This document shows, in pieces, positions 15,068-18,355 of a DNA stretch of 33,118 bases; the stretch's first letter is position 1; every line of letters begins with the position of its first letter. Under the pieces are notes generated by a model. That model saw only the letters and a list, made by a program, of their open reading frames with translations, made no database searches and was not told where the DNA came from. Position numbers and translations under genes: made by a program. The DNA comes from Lachnospiraceae bacterium. GTDB taxonomy: Bacteria > Bacillota > Clostridia > Lachnospirales > Lachnospiraceae. The DNA lies in NCBI GenBank assembly GCA_024681985.1, contig JAIKZU010000054.1, positions 1-33,118 of the forward strand. Direction: 5' to 3'.

Positions 15068-15086
15068 CAAGCAAAGGAGATAGACT

Positions 15087-17018
15087 ATGGGTTTAGTTAA
15101 AACGAATGATAATTGTGTCGGTTGCAACAGATGCATCAGTGCATGTCCTTCTTTGGGTGCAAATGTAGCCATAGAACAGGAACGAGGAAATATCATTGAA
15201 GTTGACCCTGTAAAGTGTATTGCTTGCGGAGCCTGCATCGATGCCTGTGAACATAATGCACGTGAATATGAAGATGACGTGGAACAATTCATGGAAGACC
15301 TGAAAAAAGGCGAAAAGATCTCCGTGCTCATCGCTCCTGCCTTTTTGGCAAATTATCCCAACGAATATGAAAAATATCTGGGTATGTTGAAAAAACTGGG
15401 GGTAAACCGTTTCATCAGCATTTCCTTTGGTGCGGATATATGTACCTGGGGATATATCAAATATATCACAGAGAGAAATTTCTATGGTGGCATCTCCCAG
15501 CCCTGCCCCGCTGTGGTGGGATACATAGAGCGCCACCTGCCCGAGCTTCTACCTAAGCTCATGCCGGTACAAAGTCCTATGATGTGTGGCGCCATCTATG
15601 TGAAAAAATATATGAAGGTACCGGATAAACTGGCGTTCATCAGTCCCTGTATCGCAAAGAAGAATGAGATCGATGACCCCAACAACAAGGGCGTTATTTC
15701 TTACAACCTTACATTTTCACATCTGGTGAAATACTTAAAGGATAATCCTGTCAGCGGATATCAGCCCTATACGGACGAGATCGAATACGGCTTGGGTTCC
15801 ATCTATCCCATGCCCGGTGGCTTAAAAGAAAACGTTTACTGGCTTTTGGGTGAGGATGCCATGGTCCGCCAGATGGAAGGCGAGCACCATATGTACGAAT
15901 ACTTGGAACGCAACAAAGACAAGATCAAGAGTACCAAGTTTCCTTACCTGTTCATAGATGCGTTAAACTGCACCAGCGGATGTTTATACGGTCCCGGTAC
16001 GGAATCCAGGAAGACCATGGATGAAAACACTTTCATCAGCATTCAAAAGATCAAAGCCGACAGCAAGAACGATACCAAAAAGAACCCTTGGAGCAGGAAA
16101 CTGACTCCCGCCAAACGTCTTGCGGAATTGAATAAACAGTTTGCTTCCCTTGACTTAAATGATTTTGTCCGGAAATATACGGATCGCAGTGCGGAGTGCA
16201 AATACAAAGAGCCTACTGCCGCCGAACTCGAGAAGGTCTATGAAAACATGCACAAAGACACCGCAGCCAAACGATCCATTAACTGCGGGTGCTGCGGATA
16301 CAGCACCTGTGAGGAAATGGCAAAGGCCATCTATAATGGAGTCAACCACAAGCACAACTGTGTGCATTATATCAAGGATCGGGCCTACGAAGAAAAAGAC
16401 CGCGTCATGGCCTTAAACGATGAAGTACAGCAGACCAAAGAAGAGATGCATGAAAAGATCGCGGAACTCTCCGAAGGCATCAAAGAAAACTTCCGGAATC
16501 TTACCCAGTCTGTCAGCGAGATTGAAAGTACCAGTTCCGAAAATACCAAGCAGACCACCGGTATCTATGATGCAATGGCAGAAGTGGACAGCTTCGGTGA
16601 GAACTTAAAAAATGTACTCTCCACCATTCAGGAATATCTGGAAAAGCTGGATGAAAACAATGCGGACGTAATCGCAATTTCTTCCCAGACAAATCTGTTA
16701 GCATTAAATGCCAGCATCGAAGCTGCCCGTGCGGGTGAGGCCGGCAAGGGCTTTGCGGTAGTTGCGGATCAGATCAAGATCCTTGCAGAGAATTCTAAGA
16801 CCACTGCAGATGACAGCAACAAGAATAACAACGACATCAAAGAGACCATCGAAATGCTTACGGAAGAAACCGAAAAGCTATCCGGTATCGTGGAAGAAGT
16901 CAATAAACGTGCCGAAAACCTGGTGGCGGCCGCTGAGGAAACTACTGCTTCCATCGGAAATATGCGTTCCATTACGGAAGAGGTTAAAGATTCCCTGTCA
17001 CAGATACTTCAGGAATAA
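15087..17018 (+). CDS. Soluble fusion: 2x[4Fe-4S] ferredoxin, [FeFe]-hydrogenase H-cluster domain, Fe-S (CGCCG) domain, methyl-accepting chemotaxis signalling domain
   Basis: [12 protein letters not shown] and [13 protein letters not shown]-cluster-like L1 SQPCPAVV, L2 [10 protein letters not shown]3 [41 protein letters not shown] hairpin tip [44 protein letters not shown] upstream of the ATG. No TM segment seen. Confidence 0.9.
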
Positions 17019-17040: not shown

Positions 17041-17080
17041 AAAGGTGAGCATCACATAACCATGATGTTCACCTTTTTTT
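17041..17080 (+). terminator. Rho-independent terminator after the hydrogenase-MCP gene
   Basis: AAAGGTGAGCATCA-CATAACCA-TGATGTTCACCTTTTTTT: long stem with one G-T wobble, followed by a T-tract. Confidence 0.88.
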
Positions 17081-17173: not shown

Positions 17174-18355
17174 ATGGAATATCGTTTAAACAGAAAAGGG
17201 GAAAAGATCTCTGTCTTAGGTTATGGCTGTATGCGTTTTACCACAAAAGCAGGATCCATCGATTTGGATAAGGCCGAATCCGAGATCATGGAAGCCATCA
17301 AAAACGGAGTCAACTACTTCGATACCGCTTATGTTTATTCCGGCAGCGAAGTCGCCTTAGGAGAAATCCTGCATCGCAACAATGTACGGAAAGACATACA
17401 GATCGCTACGAAGCTTCCGCAGTATTTAGTCAGCAGTCGAAGCGCTTTAGACCGTTATTTTGACGAAGAATTAAAACGACTGCAGACAGATTATGTGGAC
17501 TACTATCTCATGCATCATATGACGGCAAAGACACAATGGGATAAACTGGTCCGTCTGGGTGTCATCGAGTGGATCGCAGAAAAGAAAGCCAACGGCAGCA
17601 TCAAAAACATCGGTTTTTCCTATCACGGGAATACCGAAGACTTTATCGGGATCTTAGATGCTTATGACTGGGATTTTTGCCAGATCCAGTACAATTATGT
17701 GGACGAGCATACCCAGGCCGGTCGGGCCGGACTGGAACATGCCGAAGAAAAAGGCATCCCCGTCGTGATCATGGAACCTTTACGGGGCGGCAAACTGGTG
17801 AATCTCCTTCCCGAAAAAGCCAAAACAGCCATTAAAAACTATGAAAAAGGCTATTCTCCGGCGGAGCTGGGACTTCGCTGGCTATGGAATCAACCGGGGG
17901 TAACCTGTGTACTTTCGGGAATGAATTCCCTGGATATGGTACGGGAAAATTGCCGCATTGCTTCCGACGCCAAAGCCAATTCCTTTACGGATGAAGATTT
18001 TAAGCTGGTGGAGCAGGTAAAGGAAGCTATTTCGGAAACGGAACTTGTGGGATGTACCGGCTGCCGGTATTGCATGCCCTGTCCCAAAGGCGTAGACATA
18101 CCTGCACTCTTCCGTTGCTACAATATGACCACCCTTGACAGTAAACGGGAGGCTAGATTTGAATATGCCCAAACCGTAGGATTAAAGGATGAGCCGGGAT
18201 TTGCCACCCAATGTATCGAATGCGGAAAATGCGAAGCCCACTGTCCCCAGAGTATTCCCATCCGGGAAAAGATCAAAGAGGCGGATCGTGTGGTACGTCC
18301 CATTCCCTATCGGATCGGCATCAATGTGGTTCGTAAATTCATGTTGCGGAAGTAA
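17174..18355 (+). CDS. Aldo/keto reductase with C-terminal [4Fe-4S] ferredoxin-type domain
   Basis: AKR fold segments (SVLGYGCMRF, NYFDTAYVYSGSE, YVDYYLMHHM) and C-terminal CTGCRYCMPCPKGVDIP and CIECGKCEAHCPQSIPI. Confidence 0.93.
   Translation: MEYRLNRKGEKISVLGYGCMRFTTKAGSIDLDKAESEIMEAIKNGVNYFDTAYVYSGSEVALGEILHRNNVRKDIQIATKLPQYLVSSRSALDRYFDEELKRLQTDYVDYYLMHHMTAKTQWDKLVRLGVIEWIAEKKANGSIKNIGFSYHGNTEDFIGILDAYDWDFCQIQYNYVDEHTQAGRAGLEHAEEKGIPVVIMEPLRGGKLVNLLPEKAKTAIKNYEKGYSPAELGLRWLWNQPGVTCVLSGMNSLDMVRENCRIASDAKANSFTDEDFKLVEQVKEAISETELVGCTGCRYCMPCPKGVDIPALFRCYNMTTLDSKREARFEYAQTVGLKDEPGFATQCIECGKCEAHCPQSIPIREKIKEADRVVRPIPYRIGINVVRKFMLRK

What the first reader, a model, noticed from the sequence alone, without database searches (positions are those of the whole stretch)
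15087..17018. Soluble [FeFe]-hydrogenase/chemoreceptor chimera: candidate H2 or redox sensor wired to chemotaxis
Seen: one 643-aa ORF carries two 4Fe-4S ferredoxin motifs, an H-cluster-like hydrogenase domain, a CGCCGYSTC...C Fe-S domain and a canonical MCP signalling tip ([16 protein letters not shown]), with no TM segment. Established: MCP tips couple to CheA/CheW; sensory [FeFe]-hydrogenases (group C, HydS-like) are usually joined to PAS or kinase-type outputs. Inference: the protein is a cytoplasmic receptor that converts H2 or redox state directly into a chemotaxis signal.
Basis: partly seen in the sequence, partly recalled or inferred. Interest (0 to 1): 0.72.

Follow-up and report, generated by a model that had tools for sequence, protein, structure and literature searches.

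The report
Hydrogenase-fold soluble chemotaxis receptor
A rumen Lachnospiraceae bacterium makes a soluble protein that joins a complete hydrogenase-type iron-sulfur sensing domain directly to a chemotaxis output, so it can probably steer swimming by hydrogen or redox state; this kind is already listed in databases but no experimental test of it was found.

Summary
The 643-aa ORF (15087-17018 +) carries two [4Fe-4S] motifs, an H-cluster-type domain, a C-terminal Fe-S domain and an MCP hairpin, with no TM segment. It is not a frameshift: 119 homologues share the layout. All four H-cluster cysteines and the CpI-K358 lysine are invariant (119/119). The genome has HydE/F/G, 13 MCPs, flagellins and one flhB/flhA-cheB-cheA-cheW-cheC-cheD-sigma operon. 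Across 299 family genomes, 56 of 57 carriers have CheA; the exception is a 76%-complete genome. The C-terminal cluster's last cysteine abuts a 123-residue helix, and the hairpin is about 9 heptads shorter than in the genome's membrane receptors. The kind is not new: HydDB names it [FeFe] group C2, 'Chemotactic (putative)'. What is added: (i) the same sensor is joined in relatives to GGDEF-EAL, histidine-kinase/REC or MCP-REC outputs; (ii) 24 of 57 carrier genomes lack detectable HydE, HydF and HydG, although most keep catalytic [FeFe]-hydrogenases and their sensors keep every cofactor residue checked. The link to chemotaxis is well supported. H2 itself as the stimulus is not; redox sensing without the [2Fe] subcluster remains open.

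The parts
15087..17018 (+). Gene for the [FeFe]-hydrogenase-fold chemoreceptor, 643 aa (P0001)
   Evidence: same-length homologues
15096..15260 (+). Two ferredoxin-type [4Fe-4S] motifs, residues 4-58 (C10, C13, C16, C20 and C44, C47, C50, C54)
   Evidence: Fer4_10/Fer4_7; 117-118 of 119 homologues keep each Cys, the rest are gaps
15315..15995 (+). H-domain (Fe_hyd_lg_C), residues 77-303; ligands C140, C188, C295, C299; K191 (= CpI K358)
   Evidence: 108 bits; 119/119; Foldseek to [FeFe]-hydrogenases, best E 5.5e-16
15504..15506 (+). C140, L1 ligand (= CpI C300); preceding P139 replaces the proton-relay C299
   Evidence: alignment to the genome's own group A enzyme
15648..15659 (+). C188 to K191, L2 motif SPCIAK; S186 in place of CpI M353
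15969..15983 (+). C295 to C299, L3 motif NCTSGC; L293 in place of CpI M497
16278..16364 (+). C-terminal Fe-S domain (PF04060), residues 398-426; C400, C403, C408, C425 invariant in 119/119
16362..17012 (+). Antiparallel MCP hairpin, residues 426-642: helix 426-548, turn, helix 550-642
   Evidence: AlphaFold2 model, mean pLDDT 83.2; MCPsignal
16719..16766 (+). MCP tip [16 protein letters not shown] (CheA/CheW contact region)
   Evidence: E545 119/119, R548 118/119, F556 119/119
16923..16952 (+). Methylation-site-like segment [10 protein letters not shown] (imperfect here); family consensus nLaAStEEiaAS at +68 from the tip
   Evidence: strict consensus at +68 in 49 homologues; not in P0001 itself
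15076..15079 (+). Shine-Dalgarno-like GGAG 7 nt before the ATG
   Evidence: sequence read directly
17041..17076 (+). Strong terminator-like hairpin (14 pairs + T run); with the divergent alr upstream it makes the gene a single-gene unit
   Evidence: gene order

Best explanation
P0001 is a soluble chemoreceptor whose sensor is a complete sensory-type [FeFe]-hydrogenase module of the HydDB group C2 kind. Electrons from H2 at the H-cluster, or from the ferredoxin pool through the two N-terminal clusters, set the redox state of the cluster chain. The C-terminal [4Fe-4S] cluster, whose last ligand C425 immediately precedes the signalling helix, passes that state into the short MCP hairpin. The tip then modulates the genome's CheA-CheW flagellar system. 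Shown by sequence: domains, cofactor ligands, absence of TM, presence of CheA/CheW/CheB/CheC/CheD, flagellar genes and maturases, and co-occurrence with CheA. Inferred: cluster loading, electron flow, the stimulus (H2 and/or ferredoxin redox), the sign of the response, and joining CheA arrays.
For: Domains and fold. 119/119 homologues keep the four H-cluster Cys, the CpI-K358 lysine and the four Cys of the C-terminal cluster. Own genome: HydF (14), HydG (29), HydE (44), one CheA (13), 13 MCPs (10), flagellins (30), and an flhB/flhA-cheB-cheA-cheW-cheC-cheD-sigma operon (79-81). 56/57 carrier genomes have CheA against 98/242 other genomes, Fisher p 1e-17; the related SpoIIE-linked sensors show no such link, 23/50. 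No conserved neighbours, best 12 of 81 loci, so the output is likely in the protein itself. Continuous helix 426-548 starts right after C425. The hairpin aligns end to end, without net indels, to the soluble MCP 3g67/3g6b.
Against: CpI C299 is Pro and M497 is Leu; in CpI, M497L lacked a properly integrated [2Fe] cluster (PMC10055695). 24 of 57 carrier genomes lack HydE/F/G. A study of acetogens discarded its group C2 hits at motif validation (PMC9431212). The short hairpin may not fit the membrane arrays of the longer receptors. No sigma-28 promoter motif above background. The CheA association is uncorrected for phylogeny, though it is about one genome per genus.
Confidence: 0.72

Rival explanations
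1. [quoted passage not shown]
For: 24 of 57 carriers have none of HydE/F/G, many 94-100% complete, including G116 (71% identical) and G206 (69%). P139 and L293 replace CpI C299 and M497. Some GGDEF-EAL relatives have lost the K358-equivalent or a ligand Cys.
Against: K191, P84 and P164, which line the [2Fe] pocket, and all four Cys are kept even in HydF-less genomes (19/19 checked). 20 of the 25 HydF-less carriers still have catalytic group A/B hydrogenases, so maturation by an unknown route or missed genes is possible. The window's own genome has HydE/F/G.
Confidence: 0.35
2. H2-specific sensor with a full H-cluster, as proposed for HydS.
For: All ligands and K358 invariant; HydEFG in the own genome. 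T. maritima HydS also lacks C299, M353 and M497 yet takes up the [2Fe] cluster and is active (PMC10055695).
Against: Maturase-less carriers; no biochemical test of any C2 protein found in the papers searched.
Confidence: 0.45
3. The MCP hairpin is not used for flagellar chemotaxis but as a dimerisation or scaffold element of a redox enzyme.
For: Hairpin shorter than in all other full-length receptors of the genome; no sigma-28 promoter motif.
Against: Tip residues invariant; near-exclusive occurrence with CheA; relatives swap MCP for other signalling outputs.
Confidence: 0.12
4. Artefact: frameshift, chimera or mis-assembly.
For: None.
Against: Same layout in 119 homologues from many genomes.
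Confidence: 0.01

Closest known systems
HydDB [FeFe]-hydrogenase group C2, 'Chemotactic (putative)' (PMC5037454)
   Same: Sensory [FeFe] branch linked with methyl-accepting chemotaxis output
   Different: HydDB calls the role undetermined; its classifier was not run here. Hairpin length, CheA co-occurrence, output swaps and the maturase pattern are additions of this work
Thermotoga maritima HydS (group C, PAS-linked)
   Same: Hydrogenase module with extra [4Fe-4S] clusters; C299/M353/M497 replaced (PMC10055695)
   Different: Here no PAS domain; the Fe-S domain runs straight into an MCP hairpin
SpoIIE-linked sensory group C3
   Same: Sister clade in the tree, same Fe-S + H-domain + PF04060 core
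   Different: About 26-27% identical in the H-domain; an adjacent SpoIIE phosphatase is the likely output (L096); occurs regardless of CheA
Soluble MCP of PDB 3g67/3g6b
   Same: Hairpin of equal length: profile 450-643 to chain 4-197
   Different: A 213-residue hairpin, no Fe-S sensor
HemAT and other soluble cofactor-bearing MCPs (from knowledge)
   Same: Cytoplasmic cofactor sensor fused to an MCP hairpin
   Different: Heme/globin rather than Fe-S/H-domain

Membership tests
[FeFe]-hydrogenase H-domain superfamily | Four Cys ligands of the [4Fe-4S]H cluster in L1/L2/L3 | tested here: met
   C140, C188, C295, C299 in 119/119
[FeFe]-hydrogenase H-domain superfamily | Fold | tested here: met
   Foldseek, top hits all [FeFe]-hydrogenases, best E 5.5e-16
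Catalytic group A [FeFe]-hydrogenase | TSCCP / MPC / ACPGGC with C299, M353, M497 | tested here: not met
   QPCP / SPC / LNCTSGC; outside catalytic clades
HydDB group C2 | Sensory [FeFe] branch with MCP output | tested here: met
   MCPsignal in the same chain; groups with the C3 sensors, apart from catalytic A/B, support 1.0
HydDB group C2 | Assignment by the HydDB classifier | not testable with these tools
   classifier not available
Group C HydS (PAS type) | PAS domain after the hydrogenase module | tested here: not met
   no PAS hit in Pfam
MCP chemoreceptor | Conserved tip hairpin | tested here: met
   E545, R548, F556
MCP chemoreceptor | Methylation consensus sites | tested here: inconclusive
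   No strict site in P0001; strict site at +68 in 49 of 119 homologues
MCP chemoreceptor | CheA/CheW in the genome | tested here: met
H2-sensing hydrogenase | Binds [2Fe] and responds to H2 | not testable with these tools
   needs biochemistry

The most novel reading that the evidence does not exclude
The hydrogenase module has become a general redox signalling module in Lachnospiraceae: it works on its iron-sulfur clusters without the [2Fe] subcluster in many species that lack HydE/F/G, and it is plugged interchangeably into MCP, MCP-REC, histidine-kinase/REC and GGDEF-EAL outputs.
Probability: 0.3. Interest if true: 0.72.

Novelty: new member of a known kind. Interest (0 to 1): 0.5.

Why it matters
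H2 and reduced ferredoxin set the fermentation balance in the rumen and colon. A receptor that reads them and steers swimming would tie hydrogen exchange between species to behaviour. Group C2 has been a database label without a test that I could find; this gene and its relatives give defined proteins, named residues and a paired comparison (carriers with and without HydEFG) that could separate H2 sensing from plain redox sensing.

Tried and rejected
(1) Maturase absence as proof against H2 sensing: rejected, because 20 of 25 HydF-less carriers keep catalytic A/B hydrogenases, so the absence is not specific to the sensor. (2) Operon partners: none conserved. (3) Flagellar sigma-28 control: strict motif 0 of 77, loose motif 5 of 77 against 2.5 expected. 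(5) A published test of group C2: none found. (6) Masking as the cause of missing maturases: in the 91-100 loci checked, an N run was seen in only one (L096), away from its hydrogenase genes; not excluded elsewhere.

Full report
Observation. The ORF at 15087-17018 (+) is intact and encodes 643 aa. Pfam finds two ferredoxin motifs, the hydrogenase large-subunit C-terminal domain, the PF04060 Fe-S domain and the MCP signalling domain, in that order. There is no PAS domain and no TM segment. An AlphaFold2 model from 48 homologues (mean pLDDT 83.2, pTM 0.65) puts a 123-residue helix (426-548) directly after C425, the last cysteine of the Fe-S domain, followed by a turn and the return helix 550-642. 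Foldseek against PDB returns [FeFe]-hydrogenases, best E 5.5e-16.

Active site. Aligned with the genome's own group A and B enzymes, all four H-cluster ligands are present, with the CpI-K358 lysine (K191) and the APA and SP motifs of the pocket. CpI C299 is replaced by Pro, M353 by Ser and M497 by Leu. In 119 MCP-fused homologues the ligands and K191 are invariant, and the replacements are near-invariant. T. maritima HydS also departs at these three positions and still accepts the [2Fe] cofactor, but M497L in CpI did not integrate it properly (PMC10055695). CpI equivalences rest on motif alignment and on CpI numbering from papers and from knowledge, not on a superposition.

Genome. The genome (2.24 Mb, 87% complete) has three [FeFe] proteins, HydF, HydG, HydE, 13 MCPs, one CheA, flagellins, and one operon holding flhB, flhA, cheB, cheA, cheW, cheC, cheD and a sigma factor.

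Distribution. In 299 genomes of the family, nearly all from different genera, 57 carry an MCP-fused homologue and 56 of them have CheA; the one without is 76% complete. CheA occurs in 98 of the 242 others (Fisher p 1e-17, no phylogenetic correction). The SpoIIE-linked sensory type shows no association, 23 of 50. The counts use listed matches, so the second group may be incomplete. In GTDB the 80 best of at least 571 related stretches are almost all Lachnospiraceae, mostly rumen and gut. No neighbouring gene family recurs in more than 12 of 81 loci; the window gene sits alone between divergent alr and a terminator.

Output. From tip to C-terminus the hairpin is 92 aa (13 heptads; 13-14 in most of the family) against 148-175 aa in the 11 other full-length MCPs, all with a hydrophobic, TM-like segment. 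A methylation-like site stands at +68 from the tip in 49 homologues, against +103 to +117 in most of the membrane receptors that have one; P0001 has an imperfect version. The hairpin matches the soluble receptor structure 3g67/3g6b end to end. So the receptor is cytoplasmic and of a shorter class; whether it mixes with the membrane arrays is unknown.

Relatives. A tree of the hydrogenase region places the C2-like clade beside the SpoIIE-linked C3 type and apart from catalytic A and B. Within it, MCP forms occupy two separated clades, with histidine-kinase and GGDEF-EAL forms interleaved; parsimony counts 8 label changes against about 30 for shuffled labels. Confirmed outputs: GGDEF-EAL in L054, L055, L059, L062, L063, L064 and L139; HisKA/HATPase in L052, L053, L056, L057, L060 and L061, most with REC; MCP-REC in L089. 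Several deep nodes have low support, so the number and order of swaps is uncertain.

Maturases. HydF was not found in 25 of the 57 carriers; HydG was absent in the same 25, and HydE in 24 of them (G086 has it). Twenty of these 25 keep catalytic A/B hydrogenases, as do several C3 carriers without maturases. Agreement of three genes that often lie apart argues against random misses, but a systematic cause (unknown maturases, withheld or missing sequence) is not excluded. The sensors in such genomes keep every cofactor residue tested, 19 of 19. This is the least expected result here and it keeps the nature of the stimulus open.

Literature. HydDB defines [FeFe] C2 as 'Chemotactic (putative)', with an undetermined role that may be H2 sensing via methyl-accepting chemotaxis proteins (PMC5037454). 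An acetogen survey discarded its C2 hits at motif validation (PMC9431212). No experimental study of C2 was found in the library searched.

Verdict. A genuine, conserved, soluble hydrogenase-fold chemoreceptor; a new member of a named but apparently untested class. Coupling to CheA is well supported, the stimulus is not settled.

Noticed in passing
L054:1238-3853, L055:2086-4656(-), L059:1487-4048, L062:1933-5364(-), L063:1774-4356, L064:1849-4467(-), L139:679-3270: The same hydrogenase-type sensor fused to GGDEF-EAL, a possible c-di-GMP output; some have lost the K358-equivalent or a ligand Cys. HydDB's [FeFe] table lists no such class.
   Followed up: partly
G116, G206, G060, G031, G022, G039 and others: Near-complete Lachnospiraceae genomes with catalytic group A/B [FeFe]-hydrogenases but no detectable HydE, HydF or HydG.
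   Followed up: partly
L089:2054-4429(-): MCP-fused homologue with an added response-regulator receiver domain.
   Followed up: no
L052, L053, L056, L057, L060, L061: Same sensor fused to histidine kinase, often with REC (and Hpt in L056).
   Followed up: partly
L025 upstream of 1495 (G116:C8): Catalytic-type [FeFe]-hydrogenase gene directly upstream of the MCP-fused gene, possibly one operon.
   Followed up: no
L077:2179-6162(-): Two MCP-fused homologues of the two separate clades side by side in one genome (G108).
   Followed up: no
L072:2848-4824: Divergent MCP-fused homologue with altered L1/L2/L3 surroundings (NYC, STCVAKQ, TNCELQC).
   Followed up: no
window 17174-18355 (+): Aldo/keto reductase with a C-terminal 2[4Fe-4S] domain, next gene downstream with its own promoter-like site; not conserved as a neighbour.
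   Followed up: partly
L096:167-1216: Run of 1050 N in a fetched stretch, assembly gap or withheld sequence.
   Followed up: no
L032, L040, L047: Homologues with one in-frame stop each, decay or sequencing error.
   Followed up: no
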